The notes below the pieces were generated by a model that worked only from the letters and a program-made list of their open reading frames with translations, searched no databases and was not told the DNA's origin. This document shows positions 3,307 through 60,350 of a stretch of 64,000 bases of DNA, one piece after another. Source of the DNA: a virus; the IMG/VR virus record IMGVR_UViG_3300042564_002580, positions 1 to 64,000 of that record. The stretch is one strand, 5' to 3'. Numbering within the stretch: the stretch's first letter is position 1; every line of letters begins with the position of its first letter. The position numbers and the translations under genes are program-made.

Positions 3307-3539
3307 TGATATGCCTTAATGAATCTGGAATAAATGTTTTAAAAAAGAGGGCTGAATCAAATAGCATAGAGATTAGATGGAATAATTATGATGTTATTCT
3401 CTGGCAAAAAAATTCTTCTGGGTTTTTTAATGTAAATGGAGAATATAGAAAAAACAATTGGGGCATTAGTAGCAAATTTGCTGTTAATAAAGATGGAGTT
3501 TGGGTATTGCCAACAAAGTATGTCAAATATTTTAAATGA
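3306..3539 (+). CDS. hypothetical protein
   Basis: 77 aa from GTG 3306, overlapping the SDR stop (TAGTG). Trp- and Asn-rich with beta-like pattern; overlaps the WhiB gene by 20 nt. No recognised family. Confidence 0.6.
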   Translation: MICLNESGINVLKKRAESNSIEIRWNNYDVILWQKNSSGFFNVNGEYRKNNWGISSKFAVNKDGVWVLPTKYVKYFK

Positions 3540-3831
3540 ATTAGATTCAGACGAACAGTCAATTAGATGGTGGCACCTGGCTGCATGTAGCGGCATGGAC
3601 ACTAATCTATTTTTTGATAAATACGAATCTGATATAAATATGGCAAAGGCTATAGATCAATGCTGCCTGTCTTGCCCAGTTATGAAAATATGCCACAAGT
3701 CTGGGATTGAAAATAATGAGTACGGTGTTTGGGGCGGAGTATATTTATCTTCAGGATTAATTGATAAAATGAAAAATGTTCATAAGACAAAAGATATATG
3801 GAAACAGATTAGAGCAAAACAAAATGTCTAA
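3520..3831 (+). CDS. WhiB-family iron-sulfur transcription regulator
   Basis: 103 aa. Carries the Wbl signature: Cys23, then Cys49-x2-Cys52-x5-Cys58 for a 4Fe-4S cluster, followed by the GVWGG turn at 69-73. Start at ATG 3520 gives a typical Wbl length with WWHLAAC near the N-terminus. Wbl proteins are confined to Actinobacteria and their phages and act with the primary sigma factor, so this may reprogramme host transcription. It lies in a tightly overlapped run of small genes. Confidence 0.92.
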   Translation: MSNILNELDSDEQSIRWWHLAACSGMDTNLFFDKYESDINMAKAIDQCCLSCPVMKICHKSGIENNEYGVWGGVYLSSGLIDKMKNVHKTKDIWKQIRAKQNV

Positions 3832-4129
3832 TGTGTATGACAATAAGCATTTTAAATATGGAATGAACCAATGGACTGGTGAGCCAAACAAACCAGTTTT
3901 TTACAATCTAGAAATGAAAAATAGATTAAGAGAGCTTAAGAAGCCAATGTTTTTATTAATGGATGTTGTTCAGTATCCAGAGTTTTTAGCATTAAGATTG
4001 TATGAAGATAACTTTATTCAATTTGATGGAATTGAAAAAGAAAAGGTTATTGATTATGTTTCAAGGGCAAAGAAGCTCCTTGAATCTTACGGCGTTAGAG
4101 TCGAGTTAGAAGGAAAACCACATGGGTAA
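3824..4129 (+). CDS. hypothetical protein
   Basis: 101 aa from ATG 3824, overlapping the WhiB stop. Predicted mixed alpha/beta with a C-terminal helix; also overlaps the next gene by 8 nt. Not recognised. Confidence 0.65.
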   Translation: MSNVYDNKHFKYGMNQWTGEPNKPVFYNLEMKNRLRELKKPMFLLMDVVQYPEFLALRLYEDNFIQFDGIEKEKVIDYVSRAKKLLESYGVRVELEGKPHG

Positions 4130-4634
4130 CCAAAAACAATATCTAGAGGATTATCGGACGGCCAGCGAGCAGCAGCTTAATAAGACACACTTTCAAGTTG
4201 TAGATGAATTTGTAGAGGCTAGTAAAAACCAGTTTGATAAGTACATGTTGACAATTGCAAGAGACGGGGAACAGCCAGTTAGATCGATCCGTGAGTTTAA
4301 CAATGCGGTTGACGCTGTAAACGTTTATAACTCATACACTGACTGGGGATTTGCAAAGGACTACCTTACTGTTCGCTTATATCAACCAGGTGGATTTATG
4401 TCAGAAAAGGTATTAAGAAGAGTTCATATTGGAGGATCCAGCGGCGACTGTACTTTTATTAAAGAAGACTATATTCAAGCTGCAAAGATTATGCTAAAAT
4501 ATAAGGATACGATGGAGTATGATAACTACCAGCAGATTGTTAAAGATTTTGCTGGACTATTTTCAAGAGACAACATCAGGTTTGATGTAAGTCGTTTTTT
4601 TAAAGCAACAGAATGCGAAGAGGTTTTTGAATGA
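4122..4634 (+). CDS. two-domain protein, fused paralogue of 29296-29687 genes
   Basis: 170 aa. The middle (TDWGFAKDYLTVRLY..., about residues 68-100) matches the minus-strand product at 29484-29687, and the C-terminal half (EDYIQAAKIML... KDFAGLFSRDNIRFDVSRF) matches the product at 29296-29487, in the same order. Function unknown, but fusion of the two domains implies the split copies interact. Overlaps neighbours by 8 and 4 nt. Confidence 0.8.
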   Translation: MGNQKQYLEDYRTASEQQLNKTHFQVVDEFVEASKNQFDKYMLTIARDGEQPVRSIREFNNAVDAVNVYNSYTDWGFAKDYLTVRLYQPGGFMSEKVLRRVHIGGSSGDCTFIKEDYIQAAKIMLKYKDTMEYDNYQQIVKDFAGLFSRDNIRFDVSRFFKATECEEVFE

Positions 4635-5235: not shown

Positions 5236-5793
5236 ATGACTTGTATTGTTGCAATTGCCCAAGGTGGTGTCGTTTATATGGCATCAGATCATGCTGCATC
5301 AGATGATAAAACTGGATGGATACTATCAAGAAAAGAACCAAAGTGTTTTAAAGTTGGTCAGTATGCTATTGCATTTACAGATTCATTTCGCATGGGGCAA
5401 ATTCTTCAGTACATGTGGACGCCTCCAAAATATACACCAACAAAAACTAATTCTGGTTTAGATAAGTTTATGAGAACTAAGTTTGTTGATTCAGTTAAGC
5501 TTGCGTTTAAAGAGCATGGGTATGGAAGCATTGGGTCATCTTCAGAAGAAGATACTGGTGGTATTTTTATAGTTGGTCTTGAAGGTAGAATCTTTACTAT
5601 AGATGAAGACTTTCATGTTGGAGAAAATATTGTAAACTACATGGCAGAAGGAAGCGGCGGACAGATAGCACTTGGAGCACTGCATGCAACAAAAAATCAA
5701 AAGAACCCTAGACTTAGATTAAAAGCAGCATTAGAAGCAGCAACTGAGTTTAATATGAGCGTGGCAGCCCCCTATACATACATTCAAGTTTAG
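5236..5793 (+). CDS. HslV/proteasome-beta-like Ntn hydrolase
   Basis: 185 aa. Starts MTCIVAI, so removal of Met would expose Thr as N-terminal nucleophile, as in HslV (MTTIV). The equivalent of Asp17 is in ASDHAA and of Lys33 in the KEPKCFKV stretch; GSGGQIALGAL matches the conserved GSGG helix start of HslV. These are the key residues of proteasome-type proteases. No ATPase partner gene is nearby, so it may work alone, with a host ATPase, or on phage proteins. Transcribed from its own leaderless promoter. Confidence 0.8.
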   Translation: MTCIVAIAQGGVVYMASDHAASDDKTGWILSRKEPKCFKVGQYAIAFTDSFRMGQILQYMWTPPKYTPTKTNSGLDKFMRTKFVDSVKLAFKEHGYGSIGSSSEEDTGGIFIVGLEGRIFTIDEDFHVGENIVNYMAEGSGGQIALGALHATKNQKNPRLRLKAALEAATEFNMSVAAPYTYIQV

Positions 5794-9828: not shown

Positions 9829-10623
9829 ATGAAATTTCATTGGATGATCAGGCATGAAGATACAAGCCCAGATGGTTTAAAAAAAGCTTTTAACTATATT
9901 AATAGCTTTGGGTATAACTCATGCATGTTAACTTACCATTCAAGAGAAAATGACATGTTTATTAAGCTTGCTAGGGCAATAGACCCAAGCATAGCGTTAA
10001 AATATATTATAGCAATGAGAACCTATGCCATAAGCCCAGAGTACCTTGGGCTTATGGTAAAAGGCTTTGAAGAGATTGCAAAAGATAAGATTATGTTTAA
10101 TATAGTTGCTGGGGACCTACATGCAAATGAAACTAGTGTAGAGGATATGGTTGATTCTACTATGTTGGCCACATCCCAGGATAGAGTTAAATACACTGGG
10201 TTATGGTTAGAAAAATTCGTTAACTTGGAAATTTTAAAAGGCCGCATTCCGAAGATGTTTATGAGCGGAACTTCAAAAGCCACATTTGAAAACTGCAAAA
10301 AATTTAATGGCGGTGCCATGGTAATGGTTGATTATTATATGGAAAATAAAGAGTTCCTATCTCAATTTGATACCAGGTGTGTAAGTCTACAGATATGTAT
10401 TAGAGATACAGATGAAGAAGCTAATGAAGTAAAGCATGCAAATTATGATGGGGACAAGCTAAAGTGGTGCTATTTTTATTCAGAAAAGACTTTATTGGAA
10501 AAGCTAATTGATCTGAAAAAAAATGGAGTAACTGATATAATGGTTACTGGACTACCATTTGACCCTGAAGTTTATAGGGTTCATGAATTTATAAAGAAAA
10601 ATATGGAGATTTTTAATGGATGA
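9829..10623 (+). CDS. luciferase-like flavin monooxygenase (LLM class)
   Basis: 264 aa. The segment AMRTYAISPEYLGLMVKGFEEIAKDKIMFNIVAGD matches the SsuD/LLM core pattern (R-P-x-x-x-S-P ... G-R-L-x-x-N-V-V-x-G-D) in an all (beta/alpha)8 layout. LLM enzymes use reduced flavin and O2; substrate unknown. Overlaps the following 2OG oxygenase by 8 nt, so the two oxygenases are probably co-expressed and may act in one pathway. Confidence 0.75.
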   Translation: MKFHWMIRHEDTSPDGLKKAFNYINSFGYNSCMLTYHSRENDMFIKLARAIDPSIALKYIIAMRTYAISPEYLGLMVKGFEEIAKDKIMFNIVAGDLHANETSVEDMVDSTMLATSQDRVKYTGLWLEKFVNLEILKGRIPKMFMSGTSKATFENCKKFNGGAMVMVDYYMENKEFLSQFDTRCVSLQICIRDTDEEANEVKHANYDGDKLKWCYFYSEKTLLEKLIDLKKNGVTDIMVTGLPFDPEVYRVHEFIKKNMEIFNG

Positions 10624-11296
10624 TGTAAAGATAATTAATAATTTTATATCTAAAGAAGATATTGATATATTTAGAAAATACATAGACAACAATTGGGAAG
10701 ATCAGACCTTGTTTAGACATAGGGTTGGGTTAGCATTCAATAAAGGATTAGCAGTGAGAGCTGTTTTCCCAGACGAGAAGCCAGCATCATTATTTAAAGA
10801 GCTAGAAGACATAGTGTATAAACATTCTGAAAAATTTTTAAACCTATCTAAAGATCTTTTTTCTGACGATAGAGAGGTTTATTTTTATGGCGTATCTATT
10901 ACTAGATTGAGCAAAGATATTCAAATAAGAATTCACGCAGACATCCATGAAGACTTTAGTGATTTAGTTTATTCTGGAGTAATGTATTTAAATGATGATT
11001 ATGAGGGTGGAGAGATAACATTTGTTGATAGCCACGAGTTTACCGAAAAAGATATAAAGATGGATTACTCTAAAGGATTGCTGGTTCCATTTCCTATTTA
11101 TGAAGACTCATTAGGAGGATTTTCCTATAAGCCTGTAGCTGGAGATATTGTTATATTCCCAGCTAATAAGTTGCACGGAGGTAAGGTGGTAATTGATGGA
11201 ACTAGGGACGCAATAGTCTTTTGGTCTACGTTATCAAAAGAGTACGCATTTGAAGGTTTTGACTCAGACAGAGTCTTAAAAAAGATAAGAAGCTGA
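10616..11296 (+). CDS. 2OG-Fe(II) oxygenase, prolyl 4-hydroxylase-like
   Basis: 226 aa double-stranded beta-helix enzyme. Iron ligands His107-x-Asp109 and His187, 2OG-binding Arg197; the family hallmark YLNDDYEGGE precedes the second half. Coupled to the luciferase-like monooxygenase. One of ten such genes in the window. Confidence 0.88.
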   Translation: MDDVKIINNFISKEDIDIFRKYIDNNWEDQTLFRHRVGLAFNKGLAVRAVFPDEKPASLFKELEDIVYKHSEKFLNLSKDLFSDDREVYFYGVSITRLSKDIQIRIHADIHEDFSDLVYSGVMYLNDDYEGGEITFVDSHEFTEKDIKMDYSKGLLVPFPIYEDSLGGFSYKPVAGDIVIFPANKLHGGKVVIDGTRDAIVFWSTLSKEYAFEGFDSDRVLKKIRS

Positions 11297-12887: not shown

Positions 12888-13691
12888 ATGAAGCAGTTGT
12901 ATTTTTTGCATATTCCAAAAACTGCTGGTAAGTTTATTTCTAGTGAAATATTAAACTCTATACCAAATCATTCAGAATCTTTATATATAAGCACTCATTT
13001 TCCTAATAACAAAGAGTTTATAAAAGATAAAATATACATATCTGCACATGCTGGAACATATATACCTGAAAATATAAAAGATATTGATGTGGCTACAGTT
13101 GTTAGAAATCCAATTGATGCAAGGGCAAGCTATTTTAATTTTATATATCATATGTATTTAGACACAAGAAAAGAATATATTGATCTTGGTACAATGCGTG
13201 AAAAGTTCCTGTATTATTTATTTGAAGATAAAAATTTTTTAATTCACAACAATTATCAAAGCAGATTTTTATGCAATCCTTCCGATGAAAGATCCTGGGA
13301 CAGAAAAGCATTTTTTGAAATTCATTCACCTGACATTTTTAAAAAATATCAAGAAGGGCTTGCTTTTGACTGGTTTGTTGGTAATGAAAATACATCATTG
13401 GATTTAGCTATTAAGAATATATCTAATTTTAAAATAAAAAATACTGTAGACAGATTAGATTTATTTTTAAATAGCATATCTAAATGGTTTTTATTAAACC
13501 ATGGGTTGCAAATAAAATTTAATCAAAATGAAAAAACAAATGAAAGCCTATCCACTCATAACGGCGTAGAGTATTCATCTAAAGATTTAATAGATTTGCT
13601 TACCGAAGAAGAGATTTCTAGCATTTTATATTTAAATAGCATAGACTATGCTGTTTATAATTTTGTAAGGGAGCAAGAAAAAGATGATTAG
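12888..13691 (+). CDS. sulfotransferase-family protein
   Basis: 267 aa. FLHIPKTAGKFI (residues 6-17) is the 5'-phosphosulfate loop of PAPS-dependent sulfotransferases and VRNPIDARASYF is the 3'-phosphate loop. Predicted to transfer sulfate to a sugar or protein hydroxyl. It overlaps the dual oxygenase by 8 nt, so hydroxylation followed by sulfation is a reasonable idea. Confidence 0.8.
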   Translation: MKQLYFLHIPKTAGKFISSEILNSIPNHSESLYISTHFPNNKEFIKDKIYISAHAGTYIPENIKDIDVATVVRNPIDARASYFNFIYHMYLDTRKEYIDLGTMREKFLYYLFEDKNFLIHNNYQSRFLCNPSDERSWDRKAFFEIHSPDIFKKYQEGLAFDWFVGNENTSLDLAIKNISNFKIKNTVDRLDLFLNSISKWFLLNHGLQIKFNQNEKTNESLSTHNGVEYSSKDLIDLLTEEEISSILYLNSIDYAVYNFVREQEKDD

Positions 13692-14985
13692 TGTAAGTCC
13701 CAATAGACCAATGAAAGAGCTAGAAGATTTCAATTTTAGGCTTGCAGGATTTTACGATGTAAGCAATATTTTAGATATAACTAATTCATTTATAGACGAG
13801 TGGAATATATACACTTCAAGACAAAATGAGGTATACGATAATAGAGTTAATCCGCACTTGCATACAAATACATATATTATACAGGACCACCCGCTAGATT
13901 GGGTATTTGGTCAGCCAATTAAATCTGAGGCAAAAGATAAAAAGTGCTTAGAATCAATATCTCACATAATAAAAAATCTTGAGGAAGAGATTGTTGGAAA
14001 AGCGGCAAGGGTTCTTTTGATAAAGCTTGGATCTAAAAAAGATGTTGCTGTGCACATGGACGGTGGTGACTATTTGTCAACAGTTAGAAGATTCCATATA
14101 CCCTTAATAACAAACGATTCAGTGTCATATACTGTTGATAATGAAACTATACACATGAAAGCATCTGAATGTTGGGAAATAAACAATCTAAAATACCATT
14201 CTGTTAAAAATGATGGCGAAGAAGATAGAATACATCTGCTTGTAGACATATTACCAGAGTATTCTTTTAAGGTGTATAGTCCTGAATTAGATAAAAAAAT
14301 AAGAATTGTTGAAAATTTTATATCAGAAGATGAAGCCAACTTTTTTATAGATTACATAAATAAAAATAAAGATGATAAATCTAAGTTTCCCTTAACAAAA
14401 GGTGAGGTAAGGGGAAAAATTAGAAGCGAGGCTAACATACCAGAGCTCGTACCTTTAAAAAAACATGAAGAGATACTAGATGCTATAAAAAATATTTCAA
14501 AAAGAACAATGGCCGAGTTTAAAGATATTAGTGGGCAGGAAGACCTATGCACCTCAGCTTTTTGGATGACAAGGCTGGGACCAAAAACTATACTTCCTAT
14601 GCACCCAGATGATCATAAGTATGCCACACACCTGTACATGAGCTCAGTTATATACCTAAATGAAGATTATGAAGGAGGCTACTTAAAGTTTGGAGATGTT
14701 GATTTAACATATAAGCCTAAAAAGTATAGTGCAGTTTTTTTCCCATCTTCCTATTTGCATGAAGTTACTAGAATAATTAGCGGGATAAGGATGACTTTGC
14801 CAAATTGGGTATCAATCGGTCAAGAAAGAGACATATTCAGAGATAACCCTATAGTGTACGATCCAAGAACTTTGTTTGGAAGTAATTCTGACGATCCAGC
14901 GTTGCCAGCTTTATTTCAAAGTTGGGCTAATGCCAATAACACTACCATTACTGGTTATGACGGAACAGTTTATTCTGCAAAATAA
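13684..14985 (+). CDS. fusion of AspH-like and prolyl-hydroxylase-like 2OG oxygenases
   Basis: 433 aa with two different 2OG-Fe(II) modules. Residues 100-190 match aspartyl/asparaginyl beta-hydroxylase: His124-x-Asp126, RRFHIPL, WEINNLKYHSVKN with His172, and Arg182 in DRIHLLVD. Residues 205-380 are prolyl-hydroxylase-like: His307-x-Asp309, YLNEDYEGG, His359 and Arg369. Both sets of ligands look intact, so both modules should be active. Coupled to the sulfotransferase. Confidence 0.85.
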   Translation: MISVSPNRPMKELEDFNFRLAGFYDVSNILDITNSFIDEWNIYTSRQNEVYDNRVNPHLHTNTYIIQDHPLDWVFGQPIKSEAKDKKCLESISHIIKNLEEEIVGKAARVLLIKLGSKKDVAVHMDGGDYLSTVRRFHIPLITNDSVSYTVDNETIHMKASECWEINNLKYHSVKNDGEEDRIHLLVDILPEYSFKVYSPELDKKIRIVENFISEDEANFFIDYINKNKDDKSKFPLTKGEVRGKIRSEANIPELVPLKKHEEILDAIKNISKRTMAEFKDISGQEDLCTSAFWMTRLGPKTILPMHPDDHKYATHLYMSSVIYLNEDYEGGYLKFGDVDLTYKPKKYSAVFFPSSYLHEVTRIISGIRMTLPNWVSIGQERDIFRDNPIVYDPRTLFGSNSDDPALPALFQSWANANNTTITGYDGTVYSAK

Positions 14986-29189: not shown

Positions 29190-29321
29190 TTACTCTGCAT
29201 ATTTATTTTTATGTTTGATCTTTCTAAAATATTTTTTCTTATTGCGAACAGGTTGCGCCGCATTACTGCGACGCAATTCCTGAATTCGCTTTACTTTATC
29301 TCGAAGTGAATTTTGGGACAT
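29190..29321 (-). CDS. small basic protein
   Basis: 43 aa, Arg/Lys-rich (MSQNSLRDKVKRIQELRRSN...), likely nucleic-acid binding. Overlaps the upstream gene by 26 nt. Confidence 0.6.
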   Translation of the reverse strand: MSQNSLRDKVKRIQELRRSNAAQPVRNKKKYFRKIKHKNKYAE

Positions 29322-29487
29322 GATACCCACTCGCTTCATGAAATCTATTTACATCAAATCGTTCATTATCTTTTGCGAACATTTCCGCAAAATCATTTAC
29401 CATTTTAGAAAATAGTGCTGGGTGTGCTTTATCGCTTGCGAACTTTAAAATTTCTGCTACTGCGACATAATCTTTTCGTGTCATCAT
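29296..29487 (-). CDS. split paralogue, C-terminal half of 4122 protein
   Basis: 63 aa. KDYVAVAEILKF ... NDFAEMFAKDNERFDVNRF aligns with the last third of the 4122 protein. ATGATGA overlap with the gene carrying the other half. Confidence 0.7.
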   Translation of the reverse strand: MMTRKDYVAVAEILKFASDKAHPALFSKMVNDFAEMFAKDNERFDVNRFHEASGYHVPKFTSR

Positions 29488-29687
29488 TTAACTGATACCA
29501 TTCCTGTTCTGTAGAAAACTTTTGTATAGCATTTGCCTGTTGGCGTGTAAATATTTACAGTTGAGTATTCGTTAGCAAATCCCCAATCGGTGAATAAGAA
29601 AAAGTTTTCCCAAGCACCAAATTCGCTTTCGTATTCTGCTGACCAATGAGGAGCGTGTCCGTCATAAGCACAAGTTAATTTATACAT
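29484..29687 (-). CDS. split paralogue, middle part of 4122 protein
   Basis: 67 aa. LFTDWGFANEYSTVNIYTPTGK aligns with TDWGFAKDYLTVRLYQPGGF of the 4122 protein. Translationally coupled to its partner at 29296. Confidence 0.7.
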   Translation of the reverse strand: MYKLTCAYDGHAPHWSAEYESEFGAWENFFLFTDWGFANEYSTVNIYTPTGKCYTKVFYRTGMVSVK

Positions 29688-35435: not shown

Positions 35436-36224
35436 ATGGTTAATGCTAATCCTGAAATACTAGAATTAAATTTAAAGCTTCTTTCAAGCAAAAAATTTGA
35501 AAAGCTTTCAGATGAGGTCTATATATATAGAAACTTTTTATCTAAGCAAGAATGTATAGATTTAATAAATGAAGCTTGCCAAGATTCAGAATCACACGAT
35601 TCTGAATTTACATCTAAATCTTTAGATAGATATAGACAAAGATTGCATGAAGAATTTAACTACGAATCTCAAAGTAATATTTCTGAAAACAATTTAGGCG
35701 GCCCCTGGGATAAGCTTTTGTGTCGACAGTTAGATAAAAATAATAATTCTAATTATACATTTTCTCCTCACGTAGATATATATAATTTTTTTGTAGATTA
35801 CCACAATGCAGCTGTTCTAAAACCACTAAAAAACTATACAAAAGTAACCCTTGGCCACATGTCGTTTATAATTTATTTTTCAGAAGACTTTGAGGGTGGG
35901 GAAATTCATTATCCAGAGTATGGCATTACATACAAGCCTAAAACTGGAGACATGATTCTTCATAATGTAGAAGTTGTTCATTCTGTAAAAAAAATATTGT
36001 CTGGGAAAAGATGGTCTTATCAGTCAAGTCTTAGTTCTATTAAATACATACCAGATTTAATGTACGCAAAATTTATAGAAGATAATGATTATTACATTCA
36101 ATGTACAAATGAAAAAAATATAGAAAACAATCCTATATTTTTTTATAGGTCTGATCAAGAACCAATTTTTAATGAAAGGCTAAAGCCGTTTGCTAGTGTT
36201 AAAGGAAATTGGGGCGGAAATTAA
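35436..36224 (+). CDS. 2OG-Fe(II) oxygenase, prolyl-hydroxylase-like
   Basis: 262 aa. His112-x-Asp114, His182 and Arg192, with FSEDFEGGEIHYPEYG before the second His. Converges with the oxygenase at 36221 and overlaps its stop by 4 nt. Confidence 0.88.
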   Translation: MVNANPEILELNLKLLSSKKFEKLSDEVYIYRNFLSKQECIDLINEACQDSESHDSEFTSKSLDRYRQRLHEEFNYESQSNISENNLGGPWDKLLCRQLDKNNNSNYTFSPHVDIYNFFVDYHNAAVLKPLKNYTKVTLGHMSFIIYFSEDFEGGEIHYPEYGITYKPKTGDMILHNVEVVHSVKKILSGKRWSYQSSLSSIKYIPDLMYAKFIEDNDYYIQCTNEKNIENNPIFFYRSDQEPIFNERLKPFASVKGNWGGN

Positions 36225-37084
36225 TTTTTTAAAGAAGCTTTAAGTGCTTCTTCTTCTGCCATATCTGCAAAAAATGCTTCTGCCAAATCTAATCCTTTTA
36301 ATCCAGAGTCTTGCATCTCTTTAATTTTTTCTTTTGTAAACTGAGGATTTTCTATTAATGGCTTCATCCATTCAACCTCAAACTTAGAAGATTTATCTCC
36401 AATTTGCTCAAAGTACTCATCACTTTTGTAATTATAAAATGTTCCAGGATTATCTTCAGCTTTTAAAACAAAATTAGAGTAGGCGTATCTTGTCCCAGAA
36501 GTAACTTCTCTAACACCGTGTGCGTAATCAGAAAATGCTCCGTGTATTACTACATCTCCTTCTTCTGGCTGATACTCTAAGCATGGTCCATCAAAGTTCG
36601 TTGTTTTCTTTGTTCCATCGGGATTTATGTTTGGATAAAATATTGCTCCGCCTTCAAACTTTCCAAAGTACGCAACTAGACCGTAGTCAATTATGCAACA
36701 TGTTTGAAAAACATCTGGCTGAGATAAGAGATGACAAGAATGCTTACCTGGTGAATCAGAATGAATAAACATTCCGTTATCTCCAGGTTTTACTTTTAAG
36801 AAATTTCTAGATGGGTGAATAACATATTCTGGAAAAATTAATTCAGATATAAATTCCCAAATATCTATTATTCCATCAATTGCTCCAGTTGTTTTATCAG
36901 CATACCAATCAATTAATGTTTCTTCGTACTTGGTTGTAATTTCAGACTCTTTTTCAAGCTGGTCTTTAACTGAATTTAAAATTTCTTTAGGTATAATATT
37001 TTTAAAAACAAAAACCCCAGTCTTTGTTCCATAATCATCAATTGTTGTAACAATTGTTTTGCATTCTGGTTTATCGTAAAACAT
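36221..37084 (-). CDS. 2OG-Fe(II) oxygenase, prolyl-hydroxylase-like
   Basis: 287 aa. His108-x-Asp110, His189 and Arg199; GKFEGGAIFYPNINPDG is the family strand. C-terminal helical extension of about 75 residues. Strong AGGAGG ribosome site; coupled to the 37084 gene. Confidence 0.88.
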   Translation of the reverse strand: MFYDKPECKTIVTTIDDYGTKTGVFVFKNIIPKEILNSVKDQLEKESEITTKYEETLIDWYADKTTGAIDGIIDIWEFISELIFPEYVIHPSRNFLKVKPGDNGMFIHSDSPGKHSCHLLSQPDVFQTCCIIDYGLVAYFGKFEGGAIFYPNINPDGTKKTTNFDGPCLEYQPEEGDVVIHGAFSDYAHGVREVTSGTRYAYSNFVLKAEDNPGTFYNYKSDEYFEQIGDKSSKFEVEWMKPLIENPQFTKEKIKEMQDSGLKGLDLAEAFFADMAEEEALKASLKN

Positions 37085-48304: not shown

Positions 48305-49231
48305 ATGTCAAAACATATAGGTAGAAAGTCATCTGCTCAAGATAACTTTGTGGGACCAAATCCAGTAACTGGAGTAACCGCAACAGATTATTTAAACGGA
48401 GTAAACAACGCTAGAGCGTTTAATGACGGAGCAATTACAGTTTCATGGTCCGCTCCAGTAGCAGGAAATACACCTACTGGATATAAAGTTTATGAAGCTG
48501 GAGTTCTACGGGCAACTGTTGCTTATGGTACAAATACAGCATTAATAACTGGCTTAGGCTCAAATACTTCACATACATATGCAGTTTCGTCTTATGACTC
48601 CTATTTAGACAATTCTTCAAATGCAGTTGCTGCACCAGCAGCAACAGCAACTACTGTTCCACAAGCACCAAATACCCCAACAGCAACAGCTGGTGTAGAT
48701 TTGGATACAATTGCATGGACACTTAATGCAAATGGTGGAAAAACAGTAATTGATATATATATTGAATCAAACGAAGCGACTCCAAAAAATAAAACAGTTA
48801 CAACCGCATCAAATGGAAGCACAACTATTGCAAATGAAGCAAATACTGCACAAGCTTACAGAGTACGAGCAAGAAATGCAAATGGCTCTAGTTCATTTTC
48901 AGCATTTTCTAACTCAGTTACGACGCTACCGCCTTCATTCTTTAGCCCACCGTTCTTCCCACCTGGCTTCTTCAGCCCACCGTTCTTCCCACCTGGCTTC
49001 TTCAGCCCACCGTTCTTCCCACCTGGCTTCTTTAGCCCACCGTTCTTCCCACCTGGCTTCTTCAGTCCACCGTTCTTCCCGCCAGTGTTCTTCAGCCCAC
49101 CGTTCTTTCCACCTGGCTTCTTTAGCCCACCGTTCTTCCCACCTGGCTTCTTCAGCCCACCGTTCTTCCCACCTGGCTTCTTTTCTCCACCAGCATTTGG
49201 TGGCGGCCAATTTTCTTTGAGGGCGTACTAA
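48305..49231 (+). CDS. fibronectin-type protein with FSPPFFPPG repeats
   Basis: 308 aa. Two Fn3-like domains (about 20-105 and 115-205) followed by about nine tandem decapeptides F-F-S-P-P-F-F-P-P-G and the end FGGGQFSLRAY. The repeat is aromatic, rigid and hydrophobic; its P-P-G units are the sequence collagen prolyl hydroxylases modify. Five prolyl-hydroxylase-like genes begin 400 bases downstream. Confidence 0.75.
   Translation: MSKHIGRKSSAQDNFVGPNPVTGVTATDYLNGVNNARAFNDGAITVSWSAPVAGNTPTGYKVYEAGVLRATVAYGTNTALITGLGSNTSHTYAVSSYDSYLDNSSNAVAAPAATATTVPQAPNTPTATAGVDLDTIAWTLNANGGKTVIDIYIESNEATPKNKTVTTASNGSTTIANEANTAQAYRVRARNANGSSSFSAFSNSVTTLPPSFFSPPFFPPGFFSPPFFPPGFFSPPFFPPGFFSPPFFPPGFFSPPFFPPVFFSPPFFPPGFFSPPFFPPGFFSPPFFPPGFFSPPAFGGGQFSLRAY
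48930..49190 (+). repeat. 30-bp tandem repeats
   Basis: About nine copies of a 30-bp unit encoding FFSPPFFPPG, nearly identical at DNA level. Confidence 0.92.
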
Positions 49232-49649: not shown

Positions 49650-50345
49650 TTGAGTAAAGATATTTTAAAAAATGAGATATCTCCTGGTCTATGGGTTTAT
49701 AAAAATCAAATAGATAAAAATATCATCAATGACGTAGAAGATCTACTGTCTAAATATGATGATGATTTTGAGTGGCGAGAAGCAACAGTAGGATATGATG
49801 TAAAAGTACCTTCATATAGAGACTGTGTAGATTTTAAAATTCAAAAGCAGGAAATGCCCAACATGCCAGAAAGCAGAAAAGATTTAAATAAAATATGGCA
49901 AAAAGCATACGATATGCAGATAGATGCAGTTAAAGATTACTGCAAACTTTATAACATTGATATGCAATTCTGGGAAGCAATGAACTTTATTAAATATGGA
50001 GAAGGCCAGCATTTCCAAGAGCATTCAGATCATGGATTTTCTTACATAGCAACAGTTTCATTGGTTTCATATCCAAACGATGACTATGAAGGAGGGGAAT
50101 TATATTTCCCTAAACTTAATTTAACCATAACTCCAGAGGCAGGAGATATAGTTATTTTTCCTTCAACTTATTTGTTTTCACACAGAGCAATGCCAGTCAA
50201 ATCAGGAGTTAAGTATTCAATAGTTACAATGCTTGATTACAACGATAACACTCACAATCAGGAGTTTGATCTTCTTAGAATGAAAAGGACTAATTCTGCC
50301 GCTGCAAGAGAAAGTGCAATGAGTGGAAATAATAAAAGCTTATAA
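49650..50345 (+). CDS. 2OG-Fe(II) oxygenase, prolyl-hydroxylase-like
   Basis: 231 aa from TTG 49650. His125-x-Asp127, YPNDDYEGGELYFP, His178, and Lys188 where Arg usually binds 2OG. First of the oxygenase run behind the fibre genes. Confidence 0.88.
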   Translation: MSKDILKNEISPGLWVYKNQIDKNIINDVEDLLSKYDDDFEWREATVGYDVKVPSYRDCVDFKIQKQEMPNMPESRKDLNKIWQKAYDMQIDAVKDYCKLYNIDMQFWEAMNFIKYGEGQHFQEHSDHGFSYIATVSLVSYPNDDYEGGELYFPKLNLTITPEAGDIVIFPSTYLFSHRAMPVKSGVKYSIVTMLDYNDNTHNQEFDLLRMKRTNSAAARESAMSGNNKSL

Positions 50346-51063: not shown

Positions 51064-51810
51064 ATGGAAATAGTTAATCAAGGAATTATGGGGGGCGGAA
51101 GAGCTCCTATATCAATTACACCATCAGGTTTTTTTGGGGACTCAATAGATAATATTGTTGAGCTAGAAAACTTTATAACAGAAGAAGAACAGAAGAGGCT
51201 TATTAACTTTGCTCTAACTAATAAAGTTTGGGATAAAACAGAGACCCATATTGATGAAGACGGTTTAGTGCTTTACGATGCAAATATTTGGGAAGATAGA
51301 GTTTGTACTGCAGCCTCACTAAAAAAATCTGATCCAGCAATAATTGATTTGCTATGGGACATGATTGATAGGCTAAAAATAGAAGTAGATAAATTTTTTA
51401 ATGTTAACGTTCAAGCAACTGGCCCAGCAATTGTTAGATGGCCAGTCGGAGCAAGACAAGAGCCTCATGCAGATAAAGAGTTTCACACAGGAGAAGAAGA
51501 AGGAAGACCAAATGATTTTCCTTACTATGACATAGCTGGACTATTCTACTTTGACGATGATTACGAAGGTGGAGAGCTGTATTTTCCAAGACACGGTATT
51601 GAATTTAAGCCAAAGCCTAGGGCAGCTTATTTTTTCCCAGGAGATAAGTATTATGCTCATGGAGTTAGACCAGTAAAGTCTGGAAACAGATTTACCGCTC
51701 CATTTTTTTGGACCATTGTAGAGCACACTGGAGAAAAACAACCTCCGAAAGATTATTCAGACCAGTTTAAATCGCCGTCATGGCAAAAGCTTTATGGAGA
51801 CAGGGGTTAA
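51064..51810 (+). CDS. 2OG-Fe(II) oxygenase, prolyl-hydroxylase-like
   Basis: 248 aa. His135-x-Asp137, FDDDYEGGELYFPRHG, His199 and Arg209 in SGNRF. Confidence 0.88.
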   Translation: MEIVNQGIMGGGRAPISITPSGFFGDSIDNIVELENFITEEEQKRLINFALTNKVWDKTETHIDEDGLVLYDANIWEDRVCTAASLKKSDPAIIDLLWDMIDRLKIEVDKFFNVNVQATGPAIVRWPVGARQEPHADKEFHTGEEEGRPNDFPYYDIAGLFYFDDDYEGGELYFPRHGIEFKPKPRAAYFFPGDKYYAHGVRPVKSGNRFTAPFFWTIVEHTGEKQPPKDYSDQFKSPSWQKLYGDRG

Positions 51811-51813
51811 CAG

Positions 51814-52659
51814 ATGCATAGTTTAAATATAGTTGATGATATAAATTCTTTAGATTGGACAGAGCTGCTTCCAGGTGTAATCCTTTACAGAGGAATGCTA
51901 AAAGATCCAGACCTTGCATATAAGATAATGATGCGCTCAGAGTCTTCTGAACAAAGTAATTTTTTCCAGAACTGGACTCCATGGGCTCAATATGGAACAT
52001 ACACCCAGGCAAAAGATCAGCAAATGATTGAGTCAGCAGAAAAAAATGAAATTTTTGAAGAAGAAAAAGCTTTATACGAAGAGATTGCGACATCTTACGA
52101 TAAAGCAATATCACACTATTTTAAGCACACTGGAATTGAAATTCCAGAAGGTGCAAGATATAGTGGTCAGTCATGGTGTAAGTACTTCAATCTAATTGAT
52201 ACATTAAAAAATAAAATGACCATGCAATATCACACTGATTTTATTATTTCTCAGAAGGATATGCCTGGAGAAAAGTTTCACACAACATGTACTTTTTATA
52301 TTAATGACAATTACAATGGCGGAGATATAGAGTTCTTTGTTGAAGGTAAATTTGTAAATCATAAACCGTCTGCTGGAGACCTTCTAGTATTTCCATCAGG
52401 AGAGCCTTTCTATCATGGAGTAAAAACAATACCAGATGGAAATAAGTTCTTCATTAGAAACTTTGTAATGTTTGATTATGATGGCTCAAAAGAGTGGTTA
52501 GCAAATCAAAAAAGATACGGCGCATATAGGTGGGGTAAACAAGAAATTGAAAGAATCGCAAATGAAGACCCAAGAAATATGATCTATATAAGAGATAATG
52601 AAGTTATATCTTATGAAGAAATAATGGGCGTTGACACTGGCGGAGGAATATACAATTGA
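51814..52659 (+). CDS. 2OG-Fe(II) oxygenase, prolyl-hydroxylase-like
   Basis: 281 aa. His140-x-Asp142, INDNYNGGDIEFF (variant of the usual YEGGE), His201 and Lys211. C-terminal extension of about 60 residues. Overlaps next gene by 4 nt. Confidence 0.85.
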   Translation: MHSLNIVDDINSLDWTELLPGVILYRGMLKDPDLAYKIMMRSESSEQSNFFQNWTPWAQYGTYTQAKDQQMIESAEKNEIFEEEKALYEEIATSYDKAISHYFKHTGIEIPEGARYSGQSWCKYFNLIDTLKNKMTMQYHTDFIISQKDMPGEKFHTTCTFYINDNYNGGDIEFFVEGKFVNHKPSAGDLLVFPSGEPFYHGVKTIPDGNKFFIRNFVMFDYDGSKEWLANQKRYGAYRWGKQEIERIANEDPRNMIYIRDNEVISYEEIMGVDTGGGIYN

Positions 52660-53435
52660 AACTAATTAAAGTTAGAGATAATGAGCACCCAGTATATTTG
52701 TATGAAGATTTTTTAACTAAAGAAGAATGCGCTGGTATTATTAAAATGTTTAACAATCTTATAAAAAGCGGAGACTTTGAATGGCATCCAATTTCTTTTT
52801 ATGAGTCTTATGCGTATAACATGCCAAACCAACTAACAGATGATAAGAATAAGCTATCTCGATGGTATGCAGATGCTGGATTGCCAGACAACTTCCTAGA
52901 TGACCTAGAAAAAAAGTTTAAAGATGCAGCTCGTGAAATAATCGGAGGAGAAGCTTATAAAATAAGTTTTCATAGTCAAAAATGGATTCCTGGAGCATAT
53001 GCAGCTTTTCACTCAGACAACAGTTATGATGGTGAGCCAAGTGCATTTGAAAGAAGTAGATACGCAGGTTTTCTTTATTTAAACGATGAGTTTGATGGCG
53101 GGGAACTTAATTTTAAAAACTTTGATTTAAGCGTAAAGCCTAAAACAGGAATGTTTGCTATTTTTGACGGCGGTCATGAAAACACTCATGAGGTAACACC
53201 TGTATTTAAAAGCGACAGATATACTGTAGGATCATTTTGGGATGATCGGCCAGAAGAAGATTATCCTCAAGAAACAAGAGACAGGTGGGCTTCAGAAATT
53301 GATGATACAAGAAAGAAACAAAAAGTAGAGCAAGAAGAGTGGAAAGAGATAAGAGATAGCGGAAAAAGAAGAACGCCAGATGGCAGAGAGTATGATGCAG
53401 TTTTAGCAGAAAGCGGAGAAATCCATGGAAATTAG
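52656..53435 (+). CDS. 2OG-Fe(II) oxygenase, prolyl-hydroxylase-like
   Basis: 259 aa from TTG 52656. His119-x-Asp121, LNDEFDGGELNFKNF, His178 and Arg188 in KSDRY; basic C-terminal tail. Confidence 0.87.
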   Translation: MKLIKVRDNEHPVYLYEDFLTKEECAGIIKMFNNLIKSGDFEWHPISFYESYAYNMPNQLTDDKNKLSRWYADAGLPDNFLDDLEKKFKDAAREIIGGEAYKISFHSQKWIPGAYAAFHSDNSYDGEPSAFERSRYAGFLYLNDEFDGGELNFKNFDLSVKPKTGMFAIFDGGHENTHEVTPVFKSDRYTVGSFWDDRPEEDYPQETRDRWASEIDDTRKKQKVEQEEWKEIRDSGKRRTPDGREYDAVLAESGEIHGN

Positions 53436-54117
53436 AGAAGTTCAGCCAAGGCAAATGTACACTATGTTTGACATTGTGTTTCACGATAGAGGAATAGTTT
53501 ATTTTGAAAATGTAATTAGTTATCCAGAGACCCTGTTAAAAGTTATGGAAGACCTAGATTCTAACCCAAAATCACATAGCGGAATACCTGAATGGAGCAA
53601 GTGGGGGGCAAGCAACGATGATAATCATGGGTATGGAATTCAAAAGTTTATTGATACCTCTAAAAAGCTTATGAACACCGATGATGAGTTTTTAAACAAA
53701 CAAGTTTTGTATGTTGTTAATAGCTTAATCATGGCCCCAGAAATGTGTGCAAAAAGATATGCTGAAATAATGCGTAGAGATGCATCTAGAATCCAAAAAG
53801 TAGATAGCACACCAGAGCAGGTTAAGATGGGCCTAGATTATATTAAGGTTGCTAAATATGACACTGGTAAAGGTATGGGTCCGCATTGTGATGCTGAAGA
53901 TCCGTCTGGTACTGGACAAAATCTAAAGTACTCCCTAGTTTGCTATTTGAATGATGATTACGAAGGTGGAGAAATTTACTTTAAAAATCAAGATATAAAG
54001 ATTAAGCCAAAGGCAGGTAGCCTTGTTCTATTCCCTTCAGTTCATCCATATTTACATGAATCTCTTCCAGTTACAAAAGGAAATAAGATCATGTTTACTA
54101 CTCATTGGATGGTTTAG
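53425..54117 (+). CDS. 2OG-Fe(II) oxygenase, prolyl-hydroxylase-like
   Basis: 230 aa. His154-x-Asp156, LNDDYEGGEIYFKN, His211 and Lys221. Overlaps the previous gene by 11 nt. Confidence 0.87.
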   Translation: MEIREVQPRQMYTMFDIVFHDRGIVYFENVISYPETLLKVMEDLDSNPKSHSGIPEWSKWGASNDDNHGYGIQKFIDTSKKLMNTDDEFLNKQVLYVVNSLIMAPEMCAKRYAEIMRRDASRIQKVDSTPEQVKMGLDYIKVAKYDTGKGMGPHCDAEDPSGTGQNLKYSLVCYLNDDYEGGEIYFKNQDIKIKPKAGSLVLFPSVHPYLHESLPVTKGNKIMFTTHWMV

Positions 54118-59294: not shown

Positions 59295-60350
59295 ATGAGT
59301 AATGAACTATTAGCAAAAGCAGCTGAAGCAGGCACAACACTAACAGGTGGAATGACTGGCGCAGCAAACCCTACCGACGGAATTCACGTAGGTTCCGAGG
59401 GTAAGGGAGGTTTGCTCAATCCTGAGCAATCCGCAAGATTCCTCGATTACATGTTCGATGCAACAGTAATCGGTAAAGTAGCACGTACAGTTCGAATGAG
59501 AGCTGACACTACAGAGATTGATCGTATTGGCGTTGGCACAAAGCTTATGAAGCTTGCAGCTGAAGCAGAGAACACTGGCGAAAATGCAGCCGTACAGTTC
59601 TCAAAGATTTCTCTCACAACAAAGAAGCTTCGCCTAGATTGGGAGCTTTCAACTGAGTCTCTAGAAGACAACATTGAAGGTGCAGATCTAGAAGATCACA
59701 TTGCAAGACTTATGGCAACACAGGCTGGTAACGACCTTGAGGACGTAGTCCTTAACGGTAACACAGCTCTAACATCAGATGCACTATACAAGTCATTTGA
59801 CGGTGTTGTTAAGATTGCAAAGGCAAACGGCCATGTAGTAGCTGGAGCAGGCGCAAACGTGTCTCGTGAAATCTTCAACAAGGCTCTTAAGGCTATGCCA
59901 CGTAAGTACAAGCAACGTCGTCCAGACCTACGCTTCCTTGCAGGCTCAAACCTAATTCAAGACTACTTGTACTCAACTTCACAGTTGGGTCAATACGGTT
60001 CTGCTAACCCACAAGATATTGCTTCAAGCATTATCCGTGGAAATGAAGGCGGACTTGGTGGACCTGCAGGATATGTGGCACCATTCGCATTCGGTATTCC
60101 GATTGTTGAAGTTCCACTTCTTTCAGAGACACAAACTGGTACATATGCAACACCAACAGGCTCACATGGAGATGTCCACTTGACATTCCCAAATAACGTA
60201 GTTATTGGTATCAAGCGTGATGTAACTGTTTACCGATTCTTCTGGCCAAAGAAGGACTCAATCGAATATACAATGTATACTCGCGTTGGTACCCAAATTG
60301 AGCAGGCAGACGCATGGGTAGTCGTAAAAGACGTTAAGGTTGCTTCTTAA
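59295..60350 (+). CDS. major capsid protein, HK97 fold
   Basis: 351 aa. LLNPEQSARFLDYMFDATVIGKVARTVRM, KISLTTKKLRLDWELSTESLEDN and the C-terminal GIKRDVTVYRFFWPKKDSIEYTMYTRVG match HK97-like capsid proteins (gp5 family). GC-richer codons indicate high expression. Confidence 0.93.
   Translation: MSNELLAKAAEAGTTLTGGMTGAANPTDGIHVGSEGKGGLLNPEQSARFLDYMFDATVIGKVARTVRMRADTTEIDRIGVGTKLMKLAAEAENTGENAAVQFSKISLTTKKLRLDWELSTESLEDNIEGADLEDHIARLMATQAGNDLEDVVLNGNTALTSDALYKSFDGVVKIAKANGHVVAGAGANVSREIFNKALKAMPRKYKQRRPDLRFLAGSNLIQDYLYSTSQLGQYGSANPQDIASSIIRGNEGGLGGPAGYVAPFAFGIPIVEVPLLSETQTGTYATPTGSHGDVHLTFPNNVVIGIKRDVTVYRFFWPKKDSIEYTMYTRVGTQIEQADAWVVVKDVKVAS

What the first reader, a model, noticed from the sequence alone, without database searches (positions are those of the whole stretch)
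4122..4634. Fused versus split paralogues on opposite strands
The 4122 protein corresponds to two adjacent, overlapping minus-strand genes (29484-29687 and 29296-29487) joined in the same order. This is a natural Rosetta-stone pair: the split products should bind each other, and duplication plus fission/fusion happened inside one phage.
Basis: seen in the sequence. Interest (0 to 1): 0.65.

Follow-up and report, generated by a model that had tools for sequence, protein, structure and literature searches.

The report
Ancient fused twin of phage gene pair
This phage carries one gene that is two small proteins joined end to end, plus, elsewhere, related versions of the same two proteins as separate overlapping genes; the joining happened once, long ago, in freshwater phages, and the separate versions swap partners freely, so the "they must bind each other" reading is weak and the case is a fairly ordinary, well-resolved gene fusion.

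Summary
The 170-aa protein at 4122-4634 (+) contains, in order, homologues of the two overlapping minus-strand genes 29484-29687 (41% identity) and 29296-29487 (38%); none of 10,000 shuffles reaches either score. The history claimed is not supported. The fused form is one clade (113 public loci plus the window; 100/100 support in trees of either domain), separated from all separate forms by about one change per site. It sits in its own conserved neighbourhood and occurs with or without the split pair. The C part exists without detectable N in Streptomyces phages Tomas and Naboo and as a single gene in other cultured phages; elsewhere the separate genes lie in the opposite order. So this looks like an old, single fusion of separate genes, not recent duplication plus fission inside one phage. 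"Split products should bind" is not supported either: N and C histories correlate in the fused protein (r=0.59) but hardly in the split pair (r=0.15-0.19, no more than for neighbouring genes), and N has been exchanged as a cassette ending at the ATGATGA junction while C and flanks stayed nearly identical. Both domains lack named families or PDB relatives; function is open. Interest is modest.

The parts
4122..4634 (+). Fused two-domain gene, 170 aa (N-terminal helical extension, N domain, linker, C domain)
   Evidence: one ORF in 113 public loci; dN/dS well below 1
4122..4241 (+). Extension of about 40 residues present only in the fused form (two predicted helices)
   Evidence: Alignment A1/A7, model
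4242..4424 (+). N domain (res 41-101), predicted strand-strand-helix-strand-strand
4425..4457 (+). Linker (about res 102-112), lowest model confidence (residues 103-106 under 50)
4458..4610 (+). C domain (res 113-163), predicted three helices
29484..29687 (-). Separate N gene, 67 aa
29296..29487 (-). Separate C gene, 63 aa; weak but significant match to phrog_19432
29484..29487 (-). ATGA overlap of N stop and C start; edge of the N cassette exchange seen in relatives

Best explanation
N and C are two small, independent phage gene families of the same gene-dense region of freshwater phages related to Streptomyces phages of the Stanwilliamsviridae. Once, long ago, an N gene and a C gene became one reading frame with a short linker (and an N-terminal helical extension); that fused gene then settled next to a WhiB-like gene and descended as its own orthologous group. 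This phage inherited the fused gene and, independently, the separate N-C pair at a different conserved locus. The separate pair is an operon neighbour pair with a 4-base ATGA overlap, probably translationally coupled; its N member is exchanged between phages as a cassette whose edge is the start of C. Shown: homology, single deep fused clade, independent distribution, partner reassortment. Inferred: that the change was fusion rather than fission; translational coupling; that the fused protein holds two loosely tethered domains acting in one pathway. Functional guess (inferred, about 0.3): both are small host-takeover or regulatory accessory proteins, with the fused protein a fixed tethered version for another step or target.
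For: Fused domains form one side of a branch with 100/100 support in the N tree (24 fused vs 36 separate rows) and in the C tree (32 vs 26), branch lengths about 1.06 and 1.01. The four cultured-phage single-domain C genes all fall on the separate side. Streptomyces phages Tomas and Naboo have a C match (E=3e-12, 2e-16) and no N match at E<=1. Separate genes occur as N then C adjacent (157 loci), as C 0.5-1.8 kb upstream of N, and as C overlapping N in the reverse order (L315, L334). Neighbours of the fused gene (27 of 33 loci for most) and of the split pair (up to 158 of 160) are disjoint. Both, fused only and separate only all occur among records over 100 kb. ATGA overlap in 46 of 53 distinct junctions. 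Swap: L165 vs L160 is 94-100% identical to 250 bases upstream of C, 62-86% through N, then 90-100% from the C start on; 22 locus pairs have C>=95% with N<78%, 7 of them with the upstream 400 bases also >=85%; none shows the reverse.
Against: The domains are 50-67 residues, so many forks are unresolved; the root of the N tree is unknown, and the tree that holds all separate C domains together is not rejected (p=0.118), which leaves fission formally possible for the N half. The outgroup C genes are long branches. No cultured N outgroup was found. The N and C search seeds were close to the window, so more distant arrangements may be missed. The function proposed has no direct support.
Confidence: 0.72

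Rival explanations
1. True Rosetta-stone pair: N and C form a specific complex in both forms, and the fused gene simply tethers it.
For: Fused in one clade and adjacent, ATGA-overlapping in another; the two families keep turning up in the same gene region in several orders.
Against: Split N and C distances correlate at r=0.15-0.19, within the range of ordinary neighbours (0.03-0.47), against 0.59 in the fused protein as positive control; N is swapped while C is kept; interdomain pairs are depleted among the top covarying pairs of the fused family (1 of 20, 8 of 50, half expected; 56 sequences, underpowered); pTM 0.56 with a poor linker. Neighbouring genes overlap just as often in part.
Confidence: 0.2
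2. Fission: the fused form is ancestral and the split pair arose by a stop codon and a new start in one lineage.
For: Gene order N-C is the same; N tree root not known.
Against: Single-domain C in mycobacteriophages, a Rhizobium phage, a Pelagibacter phage and Streptomyces phages and separate genes in the opposite order would need several fissions plus rearrangements.
Confidence: 0.12
3. Recent duplication of the pair and fusion of one copy inside this phage lineage.
For: Both forms are in this genome.
Against: 41% and 38% identity, one deep fused clade shared with phages that have no split pair, disjoint neighbourhoods.
Confidence: 0.03

Closest known systems
Composite (fused) viral genes as surveyed by Jachiet et al. 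2014 (PMC4202312; abstract read)
   Same: A gene made of segments that exist as separate gene families in other phages or elsewhere in the genome.
   Different: Here both the fused and the separate form persist in the same genomes at two fixed loci, and the separate partners are seen to reassort.
phrog_19432 (unknown function, 131 positions; Konstantine gp49 type)
   Same: Its first about 54 positions match the separate C protein (E=5e-5; 12 of 20 rows of A3 match).
   Different: The mycobacteriophage proteins carry another C-terminal part and no N domain; the fused window protein itself does not reach E=0.1.
Stanwilliamsviridae Streptomyces phages (Tomas, Naboo, BillNye, Faust)
   Same: Major capsid protein about 62% identical, similar genome size; Tomas and Naboo carry a C gene.
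   Different: No N domain and no fused gene found in 8 such records.

Membership tests
Rosetta-stone gene pair | One genome has a single protein whose parts are homologous to two separate proteins elsewhere | tested here: met
Rosetta-stone gene pair | The separate partners share a common history (co-evolve) beyond background | tested here: not met
Rosetta-stone gene pair | The separate partners physically interact | not testable with these tools
   No complex prediction or experiment available
Recent in-genome paralogues | Copies nearest to each other in the tree, or nested | tested here: not met
phrog_19432 | Significant profile match of the separate C protein | tested here: met
   E=5e-5, 24.7 bits over positions 3-54 only
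phrog_19432 | Full-length architecture (131 positions) | tested here: not met
   Only the first 54 positions match
Any Pfam, NCBIfam or PADLOC family | Match above cut-off | tested here: not met
Stanwilliamsviridae-like actinophage (the window's phage) | Capsid protein relationship and actinobacterial marker gene | tested here: met
   MCP about 62% identical; WhiB at 3436-3831, E=4e-12; formal family placement not tested

The most novel reading that the evidence does not exclude
The split pair is a combinatorial two-part module: a constant C protein is kept while the N protein, a variable recognition part, is exchanged between phages at the ATGATGA junction, and the fused gene is a frozen, tethered version of the same module.
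Probability: 0.12. Interest if true: 0.45.

Novelty: new member of a known kind. Interest (0 to 1): 0.27.

Why it matters
It gives a clean natural case in which the fused and the separate form of the same two domains live side by side in one phage and in which the usual inference from fusion (the parts bind) can be checked against recombination data, and fails to gain support. It also marks a gene-boundary (stop/start overlap) at which single small genes are exchanged between freshwater actinophages. Otherwise it is an ordinary, old gene fusion of uncharacterised small phage proteins.

Tried and rejected
Whole-protein fold search against PDB and BFVD: no PDB match at E<=0.001; weak eIF4E and SMC-head sheet resemblances are below any useful level. 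PDB sequence search: only designed helical repeats for C, a composition effect, and nothing for N. Pfam, NCBIfam, PADLOC: nothing usable. Cultured-phage search with more generic N and C queries: no match. Genome-collection scan with N: one contig only, from a Methylophilaceae MAG, probably a stray phage contig. Frameshift production of a fused product from the split pair: no slippery heptamer seen by eye at the junction, not pursued. An internal start making a separate C from the fused gene: 39 of 42 distinct linkers have no Met.

Full report
What was claimed. The finding says that the protein at 4122-4634 (+) equals two adjacent overlapping minus-strand genes, 29484-29687 and 29296-29487, joined in the same order, that this makes a Rosetta-stone pair whose products should bind, and that duplication plus fission or fusion happened inside one phage.

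The ORFs are at the stated places. Residues 41-101 of the 170-aa protein match the 67-aa gene (25/61 identical, E=2e-12) and residues 114-163 match the 63-aa gene (19/50, E=4e-11); no shuffle out of 10,000 comes near (z=17.8 and 15.9). The two small proteins are unrelated to each other. The record is an IMG/VR virus contig of 117,027 bases, and a whole-record search finds just these three places. Codon-position counts against relatives show purifying selection on all three genes.

Anatomy. AlphaFold2 with 47 fused relatives (mean pLDDT 85.7, pTM 0.56) gives two N-terminal helices, a strand-strand-helix-strand-strand domain (41-99), a poorly predicted linker (103-106 under 50) and a three-helix domain (114-162). 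The separate N protein with its own 47-row alignment gives the same order of elements (pLDDT 92.1). No solved structure resembles either domain. In the BFVD library the best matches to the helical half are free-standing 58-73 residue phage proteins, among them Predator gp44.

Distribution. Scans of IMG/VR gave 113 loci with the fused form, always one ORF (33; 80), and 157 loci with N and C adjacent in that order. A search with divergent N proteins found a third set in which C lies 0.5-1.8 kb upstream of N, or overlaps it in the reverse order (L315, L334). The genes around the fused form (endolysin, WhiB, HslV-like peptidase and others) and around the split pair never mix: no fused neighbour was seen in 160 split loci and no split neighbour in 33 fused loci. 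Records with both forms, with the fused form only (for example 152, 128, 125 and 109 kb) and with separate genes only (for example 122, 118 and 117 kb) all occur; records may be incomplete.

History. In trees of the N domain and of the C domain all fused rows form one side of a branch with 100/100 support and length about 1. Cultured phages outside this group have C alone: Konstantine gp49, Predator gp44, Rhizobium phage RHph_X3_9, Pelagibacter phage HTVC033P gp07, Streptomyces phage Naboo, and in the C tree the four that were included fall on the separate side. Of eight Stanwilliamsviridae-type Streptomyces phages, the cultured relatives of this phage by capsid protein (about 62% identity), Tomas and Naboo have C and none has a detectable N or fused gene. 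The simplest reading is separate genes first and one old fusion. The N tree cannot be rooted, so this is inferred, not proven.

Do the split products belong together? In the fused family the distance matrices of the two halves correlate at r=0.59 (0 of 2000 permutations), which shows that the test can see a shared history. For the split pair r is 0.19 or 0.15, within the range for other gene pairs of the same region (0.03-0.47); the low diversity of C (mean 0.12-0.14) lowers the power. Direct comparison is clearer: L165 and L160 are 94-100% identical upstream, drop to 62-86% within N, and return to 90-100% from the first codon of C. Over 67 distinct loci, 22 pairs have C at least 95% identical with N below 78%, seven of them with the upstream 400 bases also alike, and none shows C exchanged with N kept. 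N is thus a cassette that moves without C, and its edge is the ATGATGA junction. The ATGA overlap itself is conserved in 46 of 53 distinct junctions, but other neighbours in this operon overlap too, so it is weak evidence for a special link. Covariation inside the fused family shows no inter-domain signal (1 of the top 20 pairs, 10 expected), with only 56 sequences.

Mechanism. Most likely these are two accessory small-protein families of the host-takeover or regulatory kind, co-transcribed and probably translationally coupled where adjacent; the fused gene is a separate, long-established protein in which the two domains are tethered by a flexible linker. The function is a guess: no family, structure or experiment points to a target. 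An odd contrast is left unexplained: in the split pair C is the conserved member (mean distance 0.14 against 0.33 for N), in the fused protein N is (0.35 against 0.54 for C).

Comparison with the known. Composite genes are an established class in viruses (Jachiet et al. 2014, PMC4202312). The phage is an actinophage by its WhiB gene, a marker used for freshwater actinophages (PMC6802176; PMC10202952). Verdict: real, ordinary, well resolved; the interaction and in-phage-duplication claims are not supported.

Noticed in passing
L160/L165, L058/L088, L054/L101 around the N gene: Clean exchange of the N gene alone between near-identical phages, with an edge at the first codon of C.
   Followed up: yes
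fused family vs split pair: Constraint is reversed: C is the conserved partner in the split pair, N in the fused protein.
   Followed up: partly
window 10616-11296, 13684-14985, 35436-36224, 36221-37084, 49650-50345, 51064-54117: Many ORFs with patterns like 2OG-Fe(II) oxygenases (HxD...YLN(D/E)DYEGGE...H), at least eight in one phage; read by eye only.
   Followed up: no
window 5236-5793: HslV/proteasome-like peptidase gene (phrog_1040, E=4.7e-22) two genes downstream of the fused gene, conserved with it in 27 of 33 loci.
   Followed up: partly
window 48305-49231: Protein with about nine perfect-looking repeats of FFSPPFFPPG at its C-terminal end.
   Followed up: no
L315 and L334: C and N adjacent and overlapping in the reverse order (C first).
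   Followed up: partly
L362 (CAIPBJ010000120.1): An N gene on a short contig binned into a Methylophilaceae MAG, probably a misbinned phage contig.
   Followed up: no
window 59295-60350: Major capsid protein about 62% identical to Streptomyces Stanwilliamsviridae phages, although this phage is about 38% G+C; a freshwater branch of that group.
   Followed up: partly
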